NCBI GenBank assembly: GCA_030753015.1
Contig: JASMDC010000013.1
Coordinates: forward strand, 25,216 to 89,215
Source of the DNA: Candidatus Undinarchaeales archaeon
Lineage (GTDB): Archaea > SpSt-1190 > JASMDC01
Length of the DNA stretch: 64,000 nucleotides
Direction of reading: 5' to 3'
A model generated the notes under the pieces. The model worked only from the letters and a program-made list of their open reading frames with translations, ran no database searches and had not been told where the DNA came from. How positions within the stretch are numbered: the stretch's first letter is position 1; the number at the start of each line of letters is the position of its first letter. This document shows positions 50,761-61,483 of this stretch, piece after piece. The position numbers were made by a program, and so were the translations under genes.

Positions 50761-51915
50761 ATGGAGTTAGAGGAGATACTCCACTACTTCAATCCCTGGT
50801 GGGAGGGAGAGACCGGCTTCCCGGGCATACTGCGGGACGCGTACCTCGACCGGCTCGGGGGGGAGCTCAAGGGCGACAGGCTCACCCTCGTGACCGGACT
50901 GCGACGCGTGGGCAAGACCACCCTCATGAAGCAGCTCATCCACACGCTGCAGGAGGAGGTCGATGCGAACCGTATCCTATTCATCTCCCTCGAGCATTTC
51001 GGCCTTCGTGATGAGCGGGTCTACGACATCATCGATGTGTTCCGCAAGATACACTCCCTCCCTCGAAAGGAGCGGATCTACGTGTTCCTTGATGAGATCA
51101 CCTACAAGGACGACGTGGCACGGGACCTCAAGATAGTCCACGACAACGAGAACGTGAAGCTGGTTGCAAGCTCGTCCTCAGCCACAGGCCTGCACGACGA
51201 GAAGGCTTACCTCACTGGGAGGAACCGGGTGATACGGATCGATCCTCTGGACTTCAGGGAGTACCTGACGTTCACAGGAAAGAAGGCAAGTGGTTCGGAG
51301 CGATATCTCCTTGAATCGTACTTCGAGGAGTACATGGAGTACGGGGGCATGCCAGAGTACGTGCTGACCAGGGATCCGGCGCTCATCCTTGAGCTGGTCT
51401 CTGACATCATCGAGAAGGACGTCATCGCGCGGCACGACGTCAAGGACCGAAGGACGATCGACGACCTCTTCCTCCTGCTGTGCGAACGGACGGGGAAGCA
51501 GCTCACCTACAACCGGCTGGCGCGGATACTGGATGTGAAGCCCGACACCGTGAAGAGGTACATCTCCCTCCTTGAGGAGAACCATCTGTTCTCCGTCCTA
51601 CCGCGTCATTCGAAGAGGTTGAACGAGAGGATCCGCTCACCCAAGAAGGTCTACATCGGCGACGTTGGGATTAGGAACGTGCACACCGGCTTCAGGGACA
51701 AGGGCGCGATCTACGAGAACCTCGTGTTCCTCAGGATGCGCGACGCCGTCCTCGGCTACCTGTACAGGGACGGGACCGAGATCGACTTCGTGACCGACGA
51801 GACGCTGGTAGAGGCGAAGTACAGACACGACCTCCCGGAGAGGCAGGAGGCGCTCATGCGCAAGCAGAGGGGGCGGAAGAGCGTCGTCGCTCGTGGCCAC
51901 GACTTCTTCCTGTGA
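50761..51915 (+). CDS. AAA_14/DUF4143-type archaeal ATPase
   Basis: 384 residues, full family length. Walker A GLRRVGKTT (46-54), Walker B IYVFLDE (Asp111, Glu112), sensor-like KLVASSSSATGL, then a winged-helix segment (YNRLARILDVKPDTVKRYIS) and a C-terminal PD-(D/E)xK-like motif (GTEIDFV...LVEAKYR). Members of this large prokaryotic family have no settled function; their frequent presence as variable islands suggests roles linked to mobile DNA or defence. The gene stands alone with two operators and a repeat array upstream. Confidence 0.9.
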   Translation: MELEEILHYFNPWWEGETGFPGILRDAYLDRLGGELKGDRLTLVTGLRRVGKTTLMKQLIHTLQEEVDANRILFISLEHFGLRDERVYDIIDVFRKIHSLPRKERIYVFLDEITYKDDVARDLKIVHDNENVKLVASSSSATGLHDEKAYLTGRNRVIRIDPLDFREYLTFTGKKASGSERYLLESYFEEYMEYGGMPEYVLTRDPALILELVSDIIEKDVIARHDVKDRRTIDDLFLLLCERTGKQLTYNRLARILDVKPDTVKRYISLLEENHLFSVLPRHSKRLNERIRSPKKVYIGDVGIRNVHTGFRDKGAIYENLVFLRMRDAVLGYLYRDGTEIDFVTDETLVEAKYRHDLPERQEALMRKQRGRKSVVARGHDFFL

Positions 51916-52069: not shown

Positions 52070-52774
52070 TCAGCTGCTCTGGCCGCCTATGAGGGCGATA
52101 CCGTTCTCTCCGATCTCGTAGGTGAGGAGCTTGATGGGCGTCTTGGTCCCGCGCATCTTCACGATGTCCATGGCCCGCTCCCGCTCGCCGGTGTATGGAT
52201 TGTCGCGCTTCACGAGCCGCAGAGCGCCATAAACGGAATACTCGGCCGAGTCCTGGAAGTTGCGTGACGTCGCCGCGTCGAGGATGATGAGGGCGGTGAC
52301 GTCGAGCTCCTTGAGCATGTACACCAGAAGGTCCAGCTGGTCCTTGAACTGGTACTGGTCCACCTTGGCGGCATAAGTGCCCAGGCTGTCGAACACCAGC
52401 ACCTGGGTCTCGTCCGGTGCGTGCTCGAGGATGTTGGAGAAGTTGCCTGTACGTACGGCAGTGGCCATCTTGTTGGCACGGTCGATGGACTCGACACGCT
52501 TGCCCGTGAGCTCGATGATGGAAAGGATACCCTTCTCCTCAAGGGCGTCCAGGTCCCAACCGAAGCCCTTGGCCTGGAACTTCAGGTCGGCCGCGTCCTC
52601 CTCGCTGGTGATGTACACCGTCCGCTTCCCCTGGTCACAGCAGCTCTTGGCGAACTGGAGACCGAGGATGGTCTTTCCACAGCCCGGCTCGCCGGTGAGC
52701 AGCACGGTCCGTCCGGCGGGGATGCCTCCGATGATCTCGTCGAGTCCCGCTATCCCGCTCTTGATCCTATCCAT
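52070..52774 (-). CDS. Single-domain KaiC-family ATPase (copy 1)
   Basis: 234 residues. RecA fold: Walker A GEPGCGKT (28-35), catalytic Glu pair SEEDAADL (Glu58, Glu59), Walker B QVLVFDSLGTY, and the C-terminal VKMRGTKTP typical of archaeal KaiC. Such proteins are thought to act as hexameric signalling ATPases that relay sensor input. Last gene of the cluster; a TATA-like CACATAAAAAAC at about 52818-52829 suggests its own promoter in the 79-bp gap. Close paralog of the next gene upstream. Confidence 0.92.
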   Translation of the reverse strand: MDRIKSGIAGLDEIIGGIPAGRTVLLTGEPGCGKTILGLQFAKSCCDQGKRTVYITSEEDAADLKFQAKGFGWDLDALEEKGILSIIELTGKRVESIDRANKMATAVRTGNFSNILEHAPDETQVLVFDSLGTYAAKVDQYQFKDQLDLLVYMLKELDVTALIILDAATSRNFQDSAEYSVYGALRLVKRDNPYTGERERAMDIVKMRGTKTPIKLLTYEIGENGIALIGGQSS

Positions 52775-52853
52775 GATGATCAGCTCTTGTGAAGATTATC
52801 TACTTGGAGCATCAGTTTTTTATGTGCTTGGTCGGGGCAGTGGACCCGGAGGC

Positions 52854-53555
52854 TTACACGTCCATCTCGATCTGACTCGTCAGGCTGATCCCGCCCTTGC
52901 TGATCTTGTAGGACAGCAGCTCCACTGGTGTCGCCGTTGAGCGCATCTTTACGATCTCCATGGCCCGCTCCCGCCGGCCGGTGAAGGGATTGTCCCGGCG
53001 CATCAGGCGGATGGCCCCGTACACAGAGTACATGGCCATGTCGTCGAAATGCTTGGAGGTGGCGGCGTCCAGGATGACCAGGCAGGTGATCTGCCGCTCG
53101 GCGAGGTTGTACAGCAGCAGGTCGAACTGGTCCTTGAAGTCGTAGGCTGTGACGTCTGCCGCGTAGGGGCCGAGGCTGTCGATGATCAACAGTTGCGTCC
53201 CATCAGGAATGTGCTCGATGAGGCCGGCGAAGTTGCCCTTGGCGACATCCGAGCCGATGCGTACCGAGAGTTCGATCTGCTTGGTACGCTTGCCCAAAAG
53301 CTCAACGAACGTCAGGAGCCCTTTCTTCTCAAGGTCCCAGCCAAGCGCCGTGCACTGGAGCCGGAGGTCGGCTGCGGTCTCCTCGCTCGAAAGATAGACC
53401 GTCTTCAATCCCTGCTCGCACCCGCTCCGAGCGAACTGCAGCCCCAGCACGGTCTTTCCGCAACCAGCCTCGCCCGTAAGCAGAGTTGTCCTGCCCACAG
53501 GGATGCCCCCGAAAAGATCATCGAGCTCCTTGATGCCTATCTTGATCCGTTCCAT
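52854..53555 (-). CDS. Single-domain KaiC-family ATPase (copy 2)
   Basis: 233 residues starting MERIKIGIKELDD. Walker A GEAGCGKT (28-35), Glu58-Glu59 in SSEETAADL, Walker B LLIIDSLGPY, and VKMRSTATP near the C-terminus. Residue-by-residue alignment with copy 1 requires almost no gaps in the first 60 positions, so the two arose by duplication and might assemble together. Begins 5 bases after the stop of the PAS protein. A longer frame upstream overlaps that gene and is rejected. Confidence 0.92.
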   Translation of the reverse strand: MERIKIGIKELDDLFGGIPVGRTTLLTGEAGCGKTVLGLQFARSGCEQGLKTVYLSSEETAADLRLQCTALGWDLEKKGLLTFVELLGKRTKQIELSVRIGSDVAKGNFAGLIEHIPDGTQLLIIDSLGPYAADVTAYDFKDQFDLLLYNLAERQITCLVILDAATSKHFDDMAMYSVYGAIRLMRRDNPFTGRRERAMEIVKMRSTATPVELLSYKISKGGISLTSQIEMDV

Positions 53556-53560
53556 GTCGA

Positions 53561-54493
53561 TCACTTCCCCTGCAGCCTGATGTCGAACATGCACGACTTC
53601 GCCCCTTGGGCGATGGTGCCCGTGACGCTCACCTCGCCCTTGAGCTTGGTCCATGTGAAAGTCCGGGTGACCATGGCGCGGCAGATATTGCAGAAGATGG
53701 GGCTGCCCTTTGCCTCATCGAGCCAGGGACATCGCGAGATCTGAACGGCGAGCTCATCCGGTCCCCCTGTACGCTTCGCGTGCGAGCCGAGGCCGTCGTA
53801 GAGTCCGTCCAGCCACGAGAAGAAGGCGTCAATAGCGAGGTCATCGTCGATGTTCCGGGCCACCCTCGAGTAGGGCGATGCACGCATCCGACCGAGATGG
53901 ACGTCGAACCGTTCCCGCATATTGCGATCGAACCTGTCTGCGAACGAATGGAGGAGCATGGTCCGTGCTTGCGGGGGCACTCCGGCCGCGAACACGGGGA
54001 GCGCGCTCGCCAGCAGGCTGAACACCTCGGCCCGGGCCTCGCGCTCGGTGAGCTCGTATGCCTTGAGCCGCGCGGTGATGTCGCGGAACACGATGGCGAC
54101 ACCGGAAATCTCGTCCCGTTCGTCCCTGATGAAGGCAGTATTGAGGCTTACCGGCACCCGCTTGTCACCCTTTGTCACTAGAAGGGTGTCCCGGTCATAG
54201 GTGACGCCCTCGTTCCGCTCGAAGGTCAGTGCGACCGGGCAGGTCATTGGCGTCCGCGAGCCCTCGTCCTCGAGCACGATGAGCTCGGAGATCCTCTTAC
54301 CGACGACCTCCTCGAAGGTATGTCCGGTGAGGGCCTCTGCTGCAGGGTTCATGAAGGCGATGTCACTGTTCTTGTCCGTTGCCACCACGGCGTCGGCGAT
54401 GCTGCGAAGGATGATCGACTGGCGCCGTTCCTCACGGGTGTGGTCGTGCCCGGACCGGTCCTGATCCCCTTTCGATGATGGCCTTCTTCCCAT
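53561..54493 (-). CDS. PAS-domain sensor with Cys-containing output domain
   Basis: 310 residues, no membrane segment. PAS domain at about 25-140 (ILRSIADAVVATDKNSDIAF, then PVSLNTAFIRDERDEISGVA and IVFRDITA). The C-terminal half is helical and then ends in a domain with CPWLDEAKGSPIFCNICRAM and a final GAKSCMFDIRL; the last phrase resembles the end of archaeal V4R/hydrocarbon-binding type domains, and the Cys set could bind metal. No kinase domain. GAGGTGA before the ATG and a TATA-like CGTATAAAGG (about 54520-54529) suggest an internal promoter. It likely feeds input to the KaiC proteins. Confidence 0.8.
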   Translation of the reverse strand: MGRRPSSKGDQDRSGHDHTREERRQSIILRSIADAVVATDKNSDIAFMNPAAEALTGHTFEEVVGKRISELIVLEDEGSRTPMTCPVALTFERNEGVTYDRDTLLVTKGDKRVPVSLNTAFIRDERDEISGVAIVFRDITARLKAYELTEREARAEVFSLLASALPVFAAGVPPQARTMLLHSFADRFDRNMRERFDVHLGRMRASPYSRVARNIDDDLAIDAFFSWLDGLYDGLGSHAKRTGGPDELAVQISRCPWLDEAKGSPIFCNICRAMVTRTFTWTKLKGEVSVTGTIAQGAKSCMFDIRLQGK

Positions 54494-54561
54494 CCTTGCT
54501 CACCTCAGGAGTGGAATGTCACCTTTATACGTGCTAGCCAATGAGAGCGGCGGGACAATCA

Positions 54562-55116
54562 TCAGATCTCGATGACCCGGTCGCACAGCTGGGCGATCTC
54601 GGCACGTACCATCTTGTTGATCCCGTCCTTTTTAGAGACGAGCACGCCGCTCATGTGGAAATGGCGTATGTTCGTGAGGACGATATGCATGAACCGCGCG
54701 AAGAAGAGCGGGTGGTTCTTCTCCAGCATGGCCGGGATGTCGTCGATGAGCAGGAACTTCTTGGCTGGCAGCTTCTTGATCGAGCTGATGATGGACACTA
54801 CGATGAACGTGAGGTCGGTTATGTCATCGATGCGGACGACGTTGTCGGTAAGCTCGGGTGTGGGACACTTGGCGTCCCCGTCCACGCAGTCGAGGATGAG
54901 TAGCCGCTCGCAGTCGAGGTCCTCGTTCTTGCAGCGCTCGATCAGCTTGTCCAGCGGCTGTCCCGCCGATAGCACCATGCCGCTGTACCCCTGGTCTAGC
55001 AGCTGCCGCATGGCCTCCATACCCACCTCGGGCTCGGTCCCTTCGCCCGTCTCGAGGAGGACGATACAACCCTCGGGCAGTTCCTCGATCGCCGTGCCCA
55101 CGATGGAGTCGATCAT
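54562..55116 (-). CDS. RecA-fold KaiC relative lacking Walker A (B)
   Basis: 184 residues. The strand order and phrases CIVLLETGEG, GYSGMVLSAGQPLDKLIERC, LLILDCVDGD, KKFLLIDDIPAML and MSGVLVSKKDG follow the RecA/KaiC core, and the Walker B-like FLLIDD is present, but the P-loop position reads GEGTEPEVG with no GKT/S. It probably cannot bind ATP in the usual way, as in DUF835-like archaeal proteins. Overlaps the upstream paralog by 4 bases (ATGA). Likely an adaptor or competitor for the active KaiC proteins. Confidence 0.7.
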   Translation of the reverse strand: MIDSIVGTAIEELPEGCIVLLETGEGTEPEVGMEAMRQLLDQGYSGMVLSAGQPLDKLIERCKNEDLDCERLLILDCVDGDAKCPTPELTDNVVRIDDITDLTFIVVSIISSIKKLPAKKFLLIDDIPAMLEKNHPLFFARFMHIVLTNIRHFHMSGVLVSKKDGINKMVRAEIAQLCDRVIEI

Positions 55117-55763
55117 AGGCTCACCTTGATGACCTCGTCCACCTTGAGTGCTACGTCCTTGATGAACCGTTTCTGGGCCAGATCGGCAGCGACGTTGACC
55201 ACGAGGCTGACGTTCTCGATGTCGTGGTGCTTGCGGATGGTCCTGAGCAGGAACTCCGAGAACCTCAATGTCTCGGACAGCGGCTTGTAGAGCGTGATAG
55301 TCGTGAGGGAGTCGATGAAAACGAACCGCTTGGGCCGCGACAGACGCTCGATGGACATGTAGATCGCCCGGACCAGCTCGTCGATGTCCAGCTCCGGGGA
55401 GACGTGGATGCAGCGCGGATCGTCGGTCCGTTCGGTGTCGGCGAGCGCGGTGGCCACGTCGACGAACAGGAGCTTCTTAAGGTCGATCCCCCGCTGACCG
55501 AACAGTTCCACGAGGTTCGGGAAAGGACGGTTCACGCTGACATACACGCCTTCGAAACCGAGCGCCAGAAGACCCTCCACGGTGGCGAGGTTCGCGTCGA
55601 AGTAGGCCTCTGTCGGCAGTTCGAGCATAACGACAGCCCCGGTCGCATGGTCGCTGAGCACTTGGGAAAGATGGCTCTCGATCGCCCTCCCATTTCCCGT
55701 TTCAGGTCCGTCCACGTCAGGCACCTCGCTTCTTCTTTGAAGATACTGAATCGTCTTTATCAC
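55113..55763 (-). CDS. RecA-fold KaiC relative lacking Walker A (A)
   Basis: 216 residues, paralogous to the following gene: AVVMLELPTEAYFDANLATV at the P-loop position has no GxxxxGK, then GFEGVYVSVNRPFPNLVELF, LLFVDVATAL, PKRFVFIDSLTTITLYKP (Walker B-like) and VSLVVNVAADLAQ. These features match KaiC-like/DUF835-type domains. Its first 47 bases overlap the end of the Cache sensor gene, and its stop overlaps the next start, so translation of all three is coupled. Probable non-catalytic partner in KaiC signalling. Confidence 0.7.
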   Translation of the reverse strand: MIKTIQYLQRRSEVPDVDGPETGNGRAIESHLSQVLSDHATGAVVMLELPTEAYFDANLATVEGLLALGFEGVYVSVNRPFPNLVELFGQRGIDLKKLLFVDVATALADTERTDDPRCIHVSPELDIDELVRAIYMSIERLSRPKRFVFIDSLTTITLYKPLSETLRFSEFLLRTIRKHHDIENVSLVVNVAADLAQKRFIKDVALKVDEVIKVSL

Positions 55764-57423
55764 TCTTTGCCTTCTGCAAGGGTGACGGGGATCTTGCCTG
55801 TATTGTGAGGTACACTCGCTCCCACGTGTCCGTGTACCGTTCGGGTATGGACAGGCTCAGTCGGATTGCGAGCCGCTCCCCGTCCAGAGCGTAATTAACG
55901 GTATCGGCCTCGAACCGTGTCTTCCCTTCCGCTAGAGCGACGATCTCGTGCCTGAACATGGCATATGACTCCTCCTTGAACACCTTGGGTAGCCCCGCAA
56001 GGAGCTCGTCCTTGCTCGATGCCTTGTACAGGTCGAGGGTATGCTGGTTGACATCGATGACTCGTACTATCCTTGCGAGCTTGACCAGTTCCTCCGGATG
56101 ATTATCGAGGTAGGAATCCAGGTCGGTCACACCCTCGCGCTTCAGCTCCTCGATGCGTTTCTTGCCTTCCGAGAAGTCCTCCTCCCACATCGAGATGGGA
56201 GCGTGCTCGAACAGGAACCGGTACCGCACCTCGCTCTCCTCCAGCGCCCTTTGCACCTCCTCCTTCTCCCTGAGGGTCTTTCTCAGCTCATCGCTCTCCC
56301 GTTTCAGCTCGGGTGCCGTTAGCTTCATGGCGAGCTTGAGGCTCACCATCATCCGCTCGAAGGCCCGGGCAAGCTCGCCGATCTCGTCCCGCGAGCCCGT
56401 GAGCTCCGGGTCGATGGTCGCCTCCATGTTCCCCAGGCTGATGTCCTCGAGGGTCGAACGCAGCTTCATGAGGGGGCGGGAGATCGAGTGGGCGGTCATG
56501 AGCGCGATGGCGATGACGGGCATCATCAGGATGAACAGAGCTGCTGTTGCACGGTCCTGAGCTCTATCGATCGGGTTCGTGATCTCCTCGGAATCGATCT
56601 TCACGACGAGCCCCCAGTCCGTCGCAGGGATGTACCGGGTCGCGGCCAGCACGGCCTGACCACGATAGTCCACATCCTGTGTGAACGTGTTCTCTGTCCT
56701 TGAGAGCGCCTGGATGATGGGAGCGTCCGTCCGTTCCTTGGGCATGGTATGATCCTCGCCCTCGATCTCGAACCGCAGCGGTGTGATGAAGTGAGCGTTA
56801 CCATCAGCACCTCTCATCGCGACCATGCTCTCACCCGTTTGCCCTAGGCCGGTCCGGTCCCTTGTCACGTCGATGATGCTGTCCATGCTGGCCTTGATGC
56901 AGATGACACCGATGGTCCTGTTATCGAGCACAAGGGGACCGACGAGGAGGAGCTGATGATGTATCTGGTCATTGGACCTGGCCTCCAGGTACGATCTTGT
57001 AACGCCCTTCTCGAGCTGTGGACCCGTCAGGGGGGATGTACCTTCGCTCGACGGATCTGTCGATGCGAGGACTCTCCCACCCTGATCCAGCACTGATATC
57101 TCCTCGAAGTCAGGGATCGATCCCCGTGCGTCGGCCAGGATGCGCCGCATCGTCACCAGGTCCTCGTCGCCCGCTTCCCGCAAGAACCGCTCTAAACTTA
57201 TGCGTAGCTGGGTGCGGCTCGAGACCAGTTCAAGTCGCTCGATATTACTGTCCACGACCTCCTCGACCCGTGCCTCCTGGATCGCGGCGAGGGCGTCCAG
57301 CTTCTCCGTCGCGAACTTCACGGCCTCGCGTTCTGCGATATCGAAGGTTACGAGCCCGATGATCATCATGGGGATTACGGATACGAGCAGCAGCGTTACA
57401 GGTAGCCGTCGCTTGAGGTCCAT
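55717..57423 (-). CDS. Transmembrane Cache-HAMP-PAS sensor without kinase domain
   Basis: 568 residues. N-terminal membrane helix (LPVTLLLVSVIPMMIIGLVT), extracellular dCache-type ligand domain (about 35-280; signature phrases YLEARSNDQIHHQLLLVGPL and ATRYIPATDWGLVVKID), second helix (AALFILMMPVIAIALMTAHS), HAMP (SISRPLMKLRSTLEDISLGN), a helical linker, then a PAS domain from about 400 that begins RYRFLFEHAPISMWEEDFSE. No HisKA/HATPase or methyl-accepting region follows. The signal must pass to partner proteins; the overlapping RecA-like genes and KaiC ATPases are the obvious partners. Confidence 0.9.
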   Translation of the reverse strand: MDLKRRLPVTLLLVSVIPMMIIGLVTFDIAEREAVKFATEKLDALAAIQEARVEEVVDSNIERLELVSSRTQLRISLERFLREAGDEDLVTMRRILADARGSIPDFEEISVLDQGGRVLASTDPSSEGTSPLTGPQLEKGVTRSYLEARSNDQIHHQLLLVGPLVLDNRTIGVICIKASMDSIIDVTRDRTGLGQTGESMVAMRGADGNAHFITPLRFEIEGEDHTMPKERTDAPIIQALSRTENTFTQDVDYRGQAVLAATRYIPATDWGLVVKIDSEEITNPIDRAQDRATAALFILMMPVIAIALMTAHSISRPLMKLRSTLEDISLGNMEATIDPELTGSRDEIGELARAFERMMVSLKLAMKLTAPELKRESDELRKTLREKEEVQRALEESEVRYRFLFEHAPISMWEEDFSEGKKRIEELKREGVTDLDSYLDNHPEELVKLARIVRVIDVNQHTLDLYKASSKDELLAGLPKVFKEESYAMFRHEIVALAEGKTRFEADTVNYALDGERLAIRLSLSIPERYTDTWERVYLTIQARSPSPLQKAKSDKDDSVSSKKKRGA

Positions 57424-57433
57424 GGTGCTCCTA

Positions 57434-59155
57434 TCACCCGCCGTTGAGGATGGCGAACACCCGTTCCTTGAACCGCTTGGCGTCGTCCTTTTTGAGAATG
57501 CCCTGCTTTGTGAGGTCCTTGAGGTAGTCCTCGATGTGCTCCTTGGTCAGGCCACGTGACTTCAGGTCACTGAACACGGTCCCGGCCATGGGCCCGATGA
57601 ACTGTTTGAACTCCTCGTTGAGACGCTCCTCCAGGGAATCGGACACCTTCCGTCCGACACCGGTGAGCATGCCCTCGTACCCCCTGAAGGACGGGCCTAT
57701 CACCATGCCCTCTTCGGTGATATCGTACCTTCGCAGGCCTTTGCTGTGGGCGCTGCCGCGGACCTTGAGGATATTGAGCATGAGCTTGAGCTCCCCTTCC
57801 ATCTCTACGTACCGCAACATGATGATGTTGTCGGTCATTGTGGAGAGGGTGCTCTCTGTGAGGGTGGTCTGGCCGATGAGGGACTGAGTGGCCATCGTGA
57901 ATATGGCCGTTGCTCCGCTCCCCTTCAAGTAGCCATTGAGCCGCTGGGCGAATCCGTTGAACACGTCTCCCGGGTACGAGTTGGAGACGGATGAGAGCGA
58001 GTCCACGACGCACCGCTTTATGTTCTTCTTCTCCACGATGTGCTTGATCTGGTGCAGGTGCTCCTCAGGCAGCTTCTCGCCTGGATATGCGCACCGGATG
58101 GTCAACAGACCTTCCCGCTCGTACCACTCCATATCCCAGCCAAAGCCCTTGGCGTTGCGGAGGAACTGCTCCCGGCTCTCCTCGAACCCAACGTACAAGG
58201 ACGCTTCGCCATGGCGGAGACCCTCCATGATGAAGTGCATCCCGAGCAGCGTCTTCCCCGTCCCTGTGGGGCCTGCCACGAGCGTGGACGAGCCCTCTAG
58301 AAGGCCGCCTGTCACCATCTCGTCCAGCTCCGGGACACCGGTGGACATGCGCTGAGTCGACGATCCGTAGTTGAGCTCTGTCCTTAGCAGCGGGAACGCA
58401 GTGATGCCTCCGTCGGTGATCCTGAAGAATAGCTCCTCGGCACGGTAGCTGCGGCCCCTGACCTTGACGAGACCCATCACACGCTGGAGCTCGCCACGCA
58501 CCTTCACCTGGTCCATCCTGAGGATGGCGTCGGAGATGAACTCCTCCACTCCGTACACCGAGTAGTGCCCTTCTGCGGTAACCTCGCTGGTGAGGATGGT
58601 AGTGCAACCAAGGCTTGCAAGAACTGTGCCAAGCTTGAAAATGAACTGCCTGATCTGGGCCTTGTCCTGGAGCTGATAGGCGATGGCCGTGACCGAGTCG
58701 ATGCACAGGCGTTTAGCGTTCTGCGCTTTTACCTGCTTCTCGATGAAGTCGATGACCTTCTCCTGGTCGAAATCCTTACCCGTCTTTGTGACGTTACGGG
58801 CCAGAATGTCCTGAAGGTCTACGATCATTATCTGCTCGTTCTCAAGCGCGTCCCGGTCGTAGAAGCTCATGGCCTCGAGGTTCTCGACAGCCTTGAAGAG
58901 GGGTTCGGTGACGGTGAAATAGATCCCCTTCTCGCCGTGGTGGACGCCCGCAAAAAGCCACTGGAACGAGAGGATGGTCTTACCGCTCCCCGAGGAACCG
59001 GCAAGGAGCACGACCGCTCCCTTGGGGAATCCCCCGCCCAGGATGTTGTCGAGCTCCCTCACTCCTGTGTAGGAATTCTCCTCGACGATCTCGGCGAGGT
59101 CCTCGCCCTCCTCCTCGTATAGCTTGTCGTCCTTCTTCGGAACCAGCGGTACCAC
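57434..59155 (-). CDS. Double-domain KaiC-family ATPase
   Basis: 573 residues, GTG start 59155 with TATA-like GCTTAAATTAC about 27-35 nt upstream. Two RecA modules: Walker A GSSGSGKT (53-60) and GPTGTGKT (about 293-300), Walker B-like RLCIDSVTAI and RCVVDSLSSV, catalytic acid positions in TVTEPLF and GFEESREQFL, and VKVRGRSY / LKVRGSAHS near the module ends. A C-terminal helical extension of about 70 residues (SDSLEERLNEEFKQF onward) is not part of cyanobacterial KaiC. First gene of the cluster; the sensor gene follows after 10 bases. No KaiA or KaiB seen. Confidence 0.93.
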   Translation of the reverse strand: MVPLVPKKDDKLYEEEGEDLAEIVEENSYTGVRELDNILGGGFPKGAVVLLAGSSGSGKTILSFQWLFAGVHHGEKGIYFTVTEPLFKAVENLEAMSFYDRDALENEQIMIVDLQDILARNVTKTGKDFDQEKVIDFIEKQVKAQNAKRLCIDSVTAIAYQLQDKAQIRQFIFKLGTVLASLGCTTILTSEVTAEGHYSVYGVEEFISDAILRMDQVKVRGELQRVMGLVKVRGRSYRAEELFFRITDGGITAFPLLRTELNYGSSTQRMSTGVPELDEMVTGGLLEGSSTLVAGPTGTGKTLLGMHFIMEGLRHGEASLYVGFEESREQFLRNAKGFGWDMEWYEREGLLTIRCAYPGEKLPEEHLHQIKHIVEKKNIKRCVVDSLSSVSNSYPGDVFNGFAQRLNGYLKGSGATAIFTMATQSLIGQTTLTESTLSTMTDNIIMLRYVEMEGELKLMLNILKVRGSAHSKGLRRYDITEEGMVIGPSFRGYEGMLTGVGRKVSDSLEERLNEEFKQFIGPMAGTVFSDLKSRGLTKEHIEDYLKDLTKQGILKKDDAKRFKERVFAILNGG

Positions 59156-59218: not shown

Positions 59219-61483
59219 CTAACCTTCACGCGGCAGAACGCGCCACGCGGCAAGGTAGCAGCACCCGGCCACCGCGAGCGCCCATCGGAAGCCGATGACC
59301 ATCCCCAGTTCCTGCGCTGCGAGGGAGCCAACGACCGAGGCAGCACCGTTGAGGGCCCATGCCACCGGTACGGCGTTCCCACCGATGCGAGCGAGCCCTG
59401 TCGGGAACGGCACCCCCATGAGAAGGCCCAAGGGTGCCACGAGGGCAACGACGGCCATCGATCGTTGTAGTCTATCTAGAGCGAGAGCGCTCGGGATCAG
59501 GACGTCCAGGAGGATAGGGGACGCGATGCAGAGGATGCCCAGGGCAGCTATTGCCCGGGAGGGATCGGCCAGTCGCGAGGAGAGGAGGGCTCCCAGACCG
59601 GATGAGGCGAGCAGTGCGGCAAGTGTCACTGAGAGGGTGGCAGTGGGAGAGTCAAGGAGCGGTAAGAGTCGATGGATGAGGGCTATCTCCACGGTCATGT
59701 ACGCGAGACCTACCAGCGAGAAGTATAAGGGCACGTTGCGCGGGACCTCTGCAATCTGTCCCTTGAGCGGGAGGACCACCAGGACGAGTGCCAGGACGAG
59801 TGCTTGTACGAGCATCAGCGGTACTATGAAGCCGCCCTCGATGAGCGGTTCCCAGCTCCCACCTCCGCGGTAGAGGTCGCCCGTCCGAGAGAAGCGGAAG
59901 AATTGAGCGAAGAACGGCCGGTCGTCCGAGGCAGGTCGGACGTCGAAGGCATGTCCGGCCAGTGTCCTCCCGGTGTCGGTGACAACGCCGTGGATATCGC
60001 GGAAGAGCAGCCCCTCCCCGCCACCAGGGAACGCAACGGGGCACCCGCGCTCATCGCATCGTGAGCGGATGCGTTCCAGCAGCTCGGTGGGGAGCGGGTT
60101 CGGGGAGACCACGATCGTGTATGTGGAGTAGGACGTGAACACAGCGATGTGGGACTCCAGTGCTGCGACACCCCGGTCCCGAAGGGCCGCTGCGAGTGTG
60201 GACACGAGCTTGACGCTGTCCCGGGGCACGGGGTGGAGGTAGCGTGTGACCACCAGAAGACCGCCAGGTCGGAGGGCGGCCAGGGCCGCGCCCAAACCCT
60301 CGGTCGTGAGCAGCTCGTCGGCCTCGAGGGTCGCCAGACCGGCGGACGAGACGAACGCCCGCCCCCCCTGGGTGAGGAGGATGAGGTCGAACGCTCTGGG
60401 GGAGCGGGCAAGGAAGGGTCGGGGTGTGTCGGCGGCCAGGGACACACGGGGATCGCCGGTGAGGTATCTCTCCTGGATTGTCCTGAGAATGGGATCGGGC
60501 TCCACTGCGGTCACCGATGAGGCACCGGCATGGAGAGCGAGCGCGATATCGAGGCCCGCACCGGGCCGCAGGACAAGCACGTCTCCCGGACGTGTAGGAA
60601 GGGGGACGACAGGGGGCAGGCATGCGGTGAAAGCAAGCTCGTCGCCCGGCACACCGCCCACGGCCTCGCCGTCGACGTACACCCCCAGCTGGGGCGGGAC
60701 GGGTACAGGGCAGTTCAGGCTCATCCCCGGTGCGAACCGCAGGGGCGAGCCGCCGTCAGGACGGGTGGCATTGAGCACGTCGATCCGGCTCGAGGGGCCC
60801 CACTCAGTGGACACCAGACGGGCCGCATCATAGTTGAGGTCGTGCTCCAGGCCCTTGTAGGGCGAGAGTGGGACGGCCATCCCGGGTCCAGCTAGAGCGA
60901 CCACCAGGGCGAGCGCCATGATAAGGCCAGGCATTGCTGCGCTCCGGTCGCGTGCCAGGAGCGGGGCCGCAAGGGAGCCGGCGAGAGCCGCGACAAGGGG
61001 TACGGCGGGACCGCCCAAGGCGGACGCCGCCAGGCAACCGAGGGACGCACCGAGCATGTCCGCCAGGTACACGCGCCATGGCCGACCGTGAGAGAGCGCG
61101 TAGGCAGTGCCCGTGCACATACCAGCGCACAAGAAGGGCAGTGCGATGAACAGATAATAGAGAGGGACGAGCCAGAGTTGCTGATGAGTGAGCACGAGGC
61201 TATAGGGATCGATGGGCGATAGGGCCGCGAGCATGAAGGCGGACGCCGCCGATGCCGCGAAGAGGGCAGGCCACGCGGCCAGGCGCTCGGGCGTCACCAG
61301 TCGGCGACGGATGGAGAGGAGCGTACCGGAGGCGGCGATGCCCATGACGGCACAGCCTACGACCATGACGGCGAAGTGGTGCCACAGTGACACCGAGAGC
61401 ACGCGGGTCAGCGACACCTCGAGGAAGAGGGCCGCTGCCGAGAGGAGCGCGATACCCCCCAGGTCGCGTGGGCGCAGGTCCAT
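59219..61483 (-). CDS. Polytopic membrane protein fused to spermidine-synthase-like domain
   Basis: 754 residues. About six N-terminal helices (ALLSAAALFLEVSLTRVLSV start), a central soluble Rossmann-like domain with VLVLRPGAGLDIALALHAGA and VTAVEPDPI resembling the SAM-fold of spermidine synthases, then about seven C-terminal helices (MTVEIALIHRLLPLLDSPTA). This layout is known in prokaryotes as fused MFS/spermidine-synthase-like proteins; whether it makes polyamines is unknown, and the usual GGGDG motif is altered to RPGAG. Very high G+C. ATG 61483. Same strand as, but with its own spacing from, the KaiC cluster. Confidence 0.8.
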   Translation of the reverse strand: MDLRPRDLGGIALLSAAALFLEVSLTRVLSVSLWHHFAVMVVGCAVMGIAASGTLLSIRRRLVTPERLAAWPALFAASAASAFMLAALSPIDPYSLVLTHQQLWLVPLYYLFIALPFLCAGMCTGTAYALSHGRPWRVYLADMLGASLGCLAASALGGPAVPLVAALAGSLAAPLLARDRSAAMPGLIMALALVVALAGPGMAVPLSPYKGLEHDLNYDAARLVSTEWGPSSRIDVLNATRPDGGSPLRFAPGMSLNCPVPVPPQLGVYVDGEAVGGVPGDELAFTACLPPVVPLPTRPGDVLVLRPGAGLDIALALHAGASSVTAVEPDPILRTIQERYLTGDPRVSLAADTPRPFLARSPRAFDLILLTQGGRAFVSSAGLATLEADELLTTEGLGAALAALRPGGLLVVTRYLHPVPRDSVKLVSTLAAALRDRGVAALESHIAVFTSYSTYTIVVSPNPLPTELLERIRSRCDERGCPVAFPGGGEGLLFRDIHGVVTDTGRTLAGHAFDVRPASDDRPFFAQFFRFSRTGDLYRGGGSWEPLIEGGFIVPLMLVQALVLALVLVVLPLKGQIAEVPRNVPLYFSLVGLAYMTVEIALIHRLLPLLDSPTATLSVTLAALLASSGLGALLSSRLADPSRAIAALGILCIASPILLDVLIPSALALDRLQRSMAVVALVAPLGLLMGVPFPTGLARIGGNAVPVAWALNGAASVVGSLAAQELGMVIGFRWALAVAGCCYLAAWRVLPREG

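What the first reader, a model, noticed from the sequence alone, without database searches (positions are those of the whole stretch)
52070..59155. Kinase-less sensory pathway built from five KaiC/RecA-type proteins
One cluster encodes a double KaiC, a Cache-HAMP-PAS receptor with no kinase, two tandem RecA-like proteins without Walker A, a PAS protein with a Cys-containing output domain, and two single KaiC paralogs. Overlapping starts and stops tie the receptor to the P-loop-less proteins. This suggests a full signal route in which inactive KaiC relatives carry the signal from the membrane receptor to active KaiC hexamers, distinct from two-component systems and from the cyanobacterial clock.
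Basis: partly seen in the sequence, partly recalled or inferred. Interest (0 to 1): 0.65.

Follow-up and report, generated by a model that had tools for sequence, protein, structure and literature searches.

The report
Archaeal KaiC sensory operon without phosphorelay
A seven-gene archaeal operon joins a membrane sensor that has no kinase to five clock-type (KaiC) proteins, two of them with broken ATP sites; comparison with other microbes shows it is two conserved signalling blocks side by side, with the usual phosphate-passing parts missing from both.

Summary
Seven same-strand genes (59155 to 52070) encode a double KaiC, a dCache-HAMP receptor without kinase, two KaiC-fold proteins without Walker A, a PAS-MetOD1 protein and two active single KaiCs. 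Both Walker-less proteins are predicted to have the KaiC/RecA fold, and they are old separate lineages, not recent duplicates. The cluster is two conserved blocks. Block A (double KaiC, kinase-less receptor, iK1, iK2) recurs in the same order in Altiarchaeales-type genomes. The double-KaiC/receptor pair alone recurs in Nanohaloarchaeota, Iainarchaeota and one Nitrospirota. All six receptors share a post-HAMP signature, SLKLAMxxT(A/S)P. Block B (PAS-MetOD1 next to KaiC) recurs in several archaea as REC-PAS-MetOD1 or REC-MetOD1 beside KaiC, once as one fused polypeptide; the window copy lacks the REC domain. So both ends of a possible phosphorelay are absent. KaiC and inactivated KaiC as archaeal signalling hubs were already proposed (Makarova et al. 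2017). This is a new variant of that kind, with a testable receptor-KaiC link. Nothing biochemical is shown.

The parts
57434..59155 (-). Block A gene 1: double KaiC, 573 aa; Walker A GSSGSGKT and GPTGTGKT; second domain keeps the FEES catalytic glutamates and S438/T439 at the positions of KaiC S431/T432; C-terminal ~70-aa extension of unknown fold
   Evidence: extension weakly like MCM_C winged helix (0.0005, below cut-off)
55717..57423 (-). Block A gene 2: receptor 568 aa, dCache-HAMP-signature coil FERMMVSLKLAMKLTAPELKRE, then an unassigned PAS-like C-terminus; no kinase
   Evidence: relatives
55113..55763 (-). Block A gene 3: iK1, KaiC/RecA fold without Walker A, catalytic EE or the C-terminal strands; start may be GTG 55724 or 55715
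54562..55116 (-). Block A gene 4: iK2, KaiC/RecA fold without Walker A; ATGA overlap with iK1; separate lineage from iK1 (24% identity)
53561..54493 (-). Block B gene 1: PAS-MetOD1, 310 aa, no receiver domain; Cys cluster C255/C268/C271
   Evidence: REC-bearing relatives
52854..53555 (-). Block B gene 2: single KaiC K2, Walker A GEAGCGKT, EE present
52070..52774 (-). Block B gene 3: single KaiC K3, Walker A GEPGCGKT; 60% identical to K2 (likely duplication)

Best explanation
An archaeal KaiC signalling operon built from two conserved blocks. Block A: a ligand binding outside the cell changes the dCache-HAMP receptor; the change passes down the HAMP into the conserved SLKLAM..TAP.LK coil, which docks on the double-KaiC ring and changes its ATPase or autokinase state; iK1 and iK2, KaiC-fold subunits that cannot bind ATP through a P-loop, act as a dedicated pair of accessory or adaptor subunits of that ring. 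Block B: PAS-MetOD1 senses an internal cue and sets the state of the K2/K3 KaiC rings. No phosphate is passed from a histidine kinase to a receiver, because the receptor has no kinase and the MetOD1 protein has no receiver. Shown by sequence comparison: the parts, their conservation, the predicted folds, the missing kinase and receiver. Inferred: contacts, direction of signalling, ligand, output.
For: Order double KaiC - receptor - iK1 - iK2 in Altiarchaeales ex4484_2 (a broken FIST-like gene lies between) and archaeon GMC4; double KaiC - iK1 - iK2 in Altiarchaeales B52_G2. Position-1 and position-2 iKs each group on one side of a well-supported branch (99/95 and 99/99; the second also holds one stand-alone protein, L044_7), so the two roles predate the split. 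Double KaiC next to a kinase-less HAMP receptor also in Nanohalalkaliarchaeum, Iainarchaeum and Magnetocorallium. All six receptors share FxR..xSLKLAM..T(A/S)P....E; kinase-bearing receptors beside Methanoperedens double KaiCs do not. Receptor-first search found new signature receptors, G356 and G230, with a KaiC-family gene within 451 and 16 bp. S438/T439 and the FEE motif are invariant in five double KaiCs. iK folds: Z 16.3 to KaiC-like PH0284; Foldseek 1.8e-7. Block B: REC-PAS-MetOD1 or REC-MetOD1 beside KaiC in three archaeal families; fused REC-PAS-MetOD1-KaiC in G011.
Against: No interaction or activity data. Block A joined to block B is seen only in this genome, a 117-contig MAG with 5% estimated contamination. 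The genome has histidine kinases elsewhere that might act in trans. In G356 and G286 a signature-type receptor sits with REC and HK genes, so freedom from phosphorelay is not general. Af1503-type receptors in Archaeoglobaceae carry SLKVAM with no KaiC gene in about 8 kb on either side, so the short motif alone does not imply KaiC. Three weaker signature receptors lie 3.7 to 5.8 kb from the nearest KaiC-family gene.
Confidence: 0.5

Rival explanations
1. One reading: receptor to iK1/iK2 to the active KaiCs, the inactive proteins being the obligate carriers of the signal.
For: iK1 start overlaps or abuts the receptor stop; iK1/iK2 orthology kept over a long divergence; G356 has receptor, REC, iKaiC, HK in a row.
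Against: Receptor/double-KaiC pairs without iKs nearby in Iainarchaeum and Magnetocorallium; double KaiC with iK1/iK2 and no receptor between in B52_G2 (contig starts there, so a receptor may be cut off).
Confidence: 0.25
2. Two independent systems that merely share an operon: block A and block B do not talk to each other.
For: Each block is found alone elsewhere; no other genome was found with both joined.
Against: Gaps of 68, 5 and 79 nt on one strand suggest co-transcription; both blocks lack their phosphorelay domain here.
Confidence: 0.4
3. A hidden two-component route: a histidine kinase encoded elsewhere pairs with the receptor.
For: HKs exist in the genome, e.g. next to a KaiC on contig C77; related loci G356 and G286 have HK and REC genes alongside.
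Against: No HK or REC gene in the cluster; none of the seven proteins has REC, HisKA or HATPase.
Confidence: 0.15
4. A timekeeping KaiC oscillator.
For: Double KaiC passes the NCBI PRK09302 KaiC cut-off (414 vs 408 bits) and keeps S431/T432 equivalents.
Against: Fails the circ_KaiC cut-off (342 vs 546 bits); no KaiB found in the genome while the same search rings in Synechococcus.
Confidence: 0.03

Closest known systems
Archaeal KaiC-like ATPase signalling hubs (Makarova, Galperin, Koonin 2017, mBio e01959-17; not held here, known from memory and from its citation in PMC5847659)
   Same: KaiC ATPases and inactivated homologues linked to sensor and output domains
   Different: Here a defined, recurrent receptor-KaiC-iK1-iK2 block with a receptor signature, joined to a receiver-less MetOD1-KaiC block; I could not check whether that paper lists this block
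REC-PAS-MetOD1 / REC-MetOD1 response regulators beside or fused to KaiC (G011, G033, G053, G078, G149 and others)
   Same: PAS-MetOD1 next to KaiC; those KaiCs are 47-51% identical to K2/K3 in two of the families
   Different: The window protein has no REC domain and its KaiC is duplicated
Af1503 orphan HAMP receptor (Archaeoglobus fulgidus; HAMP structures such as 2y21)
   Same: HAMP plus SLK(V/L)AM end, no kinase or MCP domain
   Different: Af1503 stops soon after the motif and has no KaiC gene nearby; block-A receptors continue with T(A/S)P and lie beside KaiC
KaiABC circadian clock
   Same: Double KaiC with CII kinase motifs
   Different: No KaiB found, receptor-linked, inactive KaiC partners, C-terminal extension
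Methanoperedens double KaiC with dCache-HAMP-GAF histidine kinase and REC (L124-L126)
   Same: Double KaiC near a dCache-HAMP receptor
   Different: Those receptors carry HisKA/HATPase and lack the SLKLAM signature

Membership tests
KaiABC circadian clock | KaiC above the circ_KaiC equivalog cut-off (TIGR02655) | tested here: not met
   342 vs 546 bits
KaiABC circadian clock | KaiB in the genome | tested here: not met
   No PF07689 match at E 0.001 in G000; control rings in S. elongatus. MAG, so absence is not absolute
KaiABC circadian clock | Two phosphorylatable residues in CII | tested here: met
   S438/T439 invariant in five double KaiCs and aligned with KaiC S431/T432
Two-component system | Histidine kinase domain in the receptor | tested here: not met
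   No HisKA or HATPase in the receptor at E 0.1
Two-component system | Receiver domain in an output protein of the operon | tested here: not met
   No Response_reg in any of the seven proteins; relatives of PAS-MetOD1 have it
KaiC/RecA fold (iK1, iK2) | RecA-type core fold | tested here: met
   iK1 pLDDT 80, Z 16.3 to PH0284; iK2 pLDDT 87, Foldseek 1.8e-7 to PH0284
Active KaiC ATPase (iK1, iK2) | Walker A motif | tested here: not met
   Absent in iK1, iK2 and their block-A orthologues
DUF7504 (PF24336) | Score above the curated cut-off | tested here: not met
   iK1 16.9 and iK2 22.7 vs 27 bits; some block-A relatives pass
MetOD1 (PF18546) | Score above the curated cut-off and Cys cluster | tested here: met
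   127 vs 23.8 bits; C255, C268, C271
Archaeal KaiC signalling hub | KaiC ATPase physically or functionally linked to sensor/output domains | tested here: inconclusive
   Gene linkage is conserved; physical linkage not testable here

The most novel reading that the evidence does not exclude
A transmembrane signalling route in which a kinase-less dCache-HAMP receptor directly sets the state of a KaiC ring through a conserved post-HAMP docking coil, with dedicated ATP-less KaiC subunits as tuners and a receiver-less MetOD1-KaiC output: a histidine-kinase-free signalling system in which a KaiC ring takes the kinase's place, its receptor-KaiC core spread across several archaeal phyla and at least one bacterium.
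Probability: 0.35. Interest if true: 0.8.

Novelty: new variant of a known kind. Interest (0 to 1): 0.56.

Why it matters
Archaea have many KaiC proteins, and how membrane signals reach KaiC is open. This gives a concrete, recurrent receptor-KaiC pair with a short conserved contact candidate (SLKLAM..T(A/S)P), two conserved inactive partners and a natural REC-PAS-MetOD1-KaiC fusion, so receptor-to-KaiC coupling can be tested directly. It also suggests a question for Af1503-type orphan HAMP receptors, which share the end of this motif but whose partner is not indicated by their neighbourhood.

Tried and rejected
Genome-contig scan with iK2 alone found nothing. No iK1 relative in the window's own class, and no other class in its phylum among the 10 genomes held. 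Af1503 as a KaiC-linked receptor: rejected on neighbourhood, no KaiC gene in the fetched stretches around AF1503 in G410 (contig length 2,178,400, taken as A. fulgidus) or around its relatives. iK1/iK2 as recent tandem duplicates: rejected by the tree. Seven genes as one ancestral unit: rejected, two blocks. DUF7504 membership of iK1/iK2: below cut-off. C-terminal extension of double KaiC as a known domain: only a sub-threshold MCM_C match in one of three sequences. The receptor C-terminus gave only low-level PAS and unconvincing designed-TIM-barrel matches. Defence-system reading: no convincing PADLOC match for the seven proteins. The row labelled 'win' is empty because of a script error; the window receptor was read and aligned.

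Full report
WHAT IS THERE. Seven same-strand genes run from 59155 down to 52070: double KaiC; receptor; iK1; iK2; PAS-MetOD1; KaiC K2; KaiC K3. Pfam and NCBIfam give two full KaiC domains in the first (E 6.9e-105), HAMP and a weak dCache in the receptor with no kinase, MCP or cyclase domain, sub-threshold KaiC/DUF7504 in iK1 and iK2, PAS + MetOD1 (PF18546, 127 bits) in the fifth, and single KaiCs in the last two. Walker A motifs are intact in the double KaiC (both halves), K2 and K3, and absent in iK1 and iK2, which also lack the catalytic glutamates and the C-terminal strands of the domain. The genes are tightly packed: 10 nt, then an overlap or 1 nt depending on the iK1 start, a 4-nt ATGA overlap, 68, 5 and 79 nt. 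K2 most likely starts at 53555.

FOLD OF THE WALKER-LESS PROTEINS. AlphaFold2 on small alignments gives pLDDT 80 (iK1) and 87 (iK2). iK1 aligns over 177 residues with KaiC-like PH0284 (Z 16.3, 2.8 A) and with KaiC CII (Z about 14). iK2's best Foldseek matches are PH0284, FlaH and KaiC.

BLOCK A IS CONSERVED. Full-length relatives of the double KaiC, extension included, were found in G226 (58%), G208 (52%) and G388 (45%) among 394 archaeal genomes, with G397 added from the phylum of G208, and by a named scan in Altiarchaeales B52_G2 (same contig as G226), Altiarchaeales ex4484_2 (G208), archaeon GMC4 (G397), Nanohalalkaliarchaeum (G388), an Iainarchaeum and the bacterium Magnetocorallium, a Nitrospirota. 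Gene order: GMC4 double KaiC - dCache-HAMP-PAS receptor - iK1 - iK2; ex4484_2 the same with a dCache-HAMP receptor and, between receptor and iK1, a broken FIST-like gene (read by eye) and a HAMP remnant; B52_G2 double KaiC - iK1 - iK2, the contig beginning at the double KaiC; Nanohalalkaliarchaeum double KaiC - HAMP-PAS receptor - a 211-aa protein with weak V4R and KaiB matches - a DUF7504 protein; Iainarchaeum double KaiC overlapping a dCache-HAMP-PAS-PAS-GAF receptor; Magnetocorallium double KaiC - MASE3-HAMP-GAF receptor - REC...HK gene. None of these receptors has a kinase domain. In a tree of 46 inactive KaiCs, the first-position proteins form one group (99/95) and the second-position proteins another (99/99, with one stand-alone protein from G063 inside), so iK1 and iK2 are two old lineages kept together in fixed order.

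RECEPTOR SIGNATURE. The six kinase-less receptors share, right after HAMP, F(D/E)R..(V/T)SLKLAM..T(A/S)P....E. Kinase-bearing dCache-HAMP receptors near Methanoperedens double KaiCs do not. The profile's best solved matches are Af1503 HAMP structures, which end in SLKVAM. Searching 394 genomes with the profile found two further strong cases, both kinase-less: G356 (KaiC-family gene 451 bp away) and G230 (16 bp). Three weaker cases lie 3.7-5.8 kb from a KaiC-family gene, and Af1503 relatives in Archaeoglobaceae have none in the fetched stretches. The long signature therefore tracks KaiC linkage; the short SLKxAM does not. Caveat: the profile was trained on receptors chosen for lying next to a double KaiC.

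BLOCK B. PAS-MetOD1 relatives in families f36 and f5 have a KaiC gene directly next to them that is 47-51% identical to K2/K3; REC-MetOD1 genes in f29 also neighbour a KaiC. In G011 REC, PAS, MetOD1 and KaiC form one 668-aa protein. A second MetOD1 paralogue set (277-aa REC-MetOD1) shows no KaiC neighbour, so the link is specific to some lineages. The KaiC-linked relatives carry a REC domain (in G342 as a separate neighbouring frame); the window protein has only about 26 residues before PAS, so the receiver is missing. K2 and K3 are 60% identical.

MECHANISM. Best reading: receptor HAMP/coil acts on the double-KaiC ring; iK1/iK2 are dedicated inactive subunits; PAS-MetOD1 acts on K2/K3 rings; no phosphotransfer. 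The receptor/double-KaiC pair occurs without iKs nearby, which argues against the iKs as obligate carriers. The double KaiC keeps the CII glutamates and S438/T439, aligned with KaiC S431/T432 and invariant in five relatives, so autophosphorylation is plausible but untested. The genome lacks a detectable KaiB, so a clock is unlikely.

PRIOR ART. KaiC-like ATPases and inactivated homologues as archaeal signal hubs were proposed by Makarova et al. 2017 (not held; cited in PMC5847659). MetOD1 and REC-PAS-MetOD1 were defined in PMC5847659. A full-text search for MetOD1 with KaiC found only that paper, and its passages that I read do not describe a MetOD1-KaiC link. I could not check whether the 2017 paper lists these blocks. 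Novelty is therefore a new variant of a known kind.

LIMITS. All evidence is comparative; the source is a draft genome, probably a MAG (117 contigs, 98.9% complete, 5.01% contamination); the A+B junction is seen once; iK alignments for folding were shallow; complexes could not be predicted.

Noticed in passing
L072:7634-8806 (own genome, contig C33): 390-aa protein: KaiC domain without Walker A fused to a Ras/Arf-type small GTPase, next to a DUF7504 inactive KaiC.
   Followed up: partly
L099:730-2736 (G011): Natural REC-PAS-MetOD1-KaiC fusion protein, 668 aa.
   Followed up: yes
L122:5196-5831 (same as L112): 211-aa protein between receptor and inactive KaiC in Nanohalalkaliarchaeum, with weak V4R (0.0037) and KaiB (0.0056) matches; MetOD1 is V4R-like.
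   Followed up: no
L194:7673-9494 (A. fulgidus AF1503 region): Af1503-type receptors often have a ~170-210-aa gene overlapping just upstream and a 67-68-aa gene just downstream, possible partners of this orphan receptor.
   Followed up: no
L111:11320-12300: In Altiarchaeales ex4484_2 a frameshifted FIST-like gene and a remnant of a second HAMP-signature receptor lie between receptor and iK1.
   Followed up: partly
L167:5418-8969 (G356) and L171:4040-10526 (G286): Mixed loci: kinase-less HAMP receptor, REC proteins, inactive KaiC and a separate HAMP histidine kinase; L171 also has a hemerythrin gene before an active KaiC.
   Followed up: partly
window 50761-51915: AAA_14/DUF4143 ATPase on the opposite strand after the operon; matches PADLOC candidate PDC-S01 (6e-67).
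   Followed up: no
window 59219-61483: 754-aa hydrophobic protein, same strand, 63 nt before the double KaiC; no Pfam match at E 0.1 and no relative near block A in the fetched loci.
   Followed up: partly
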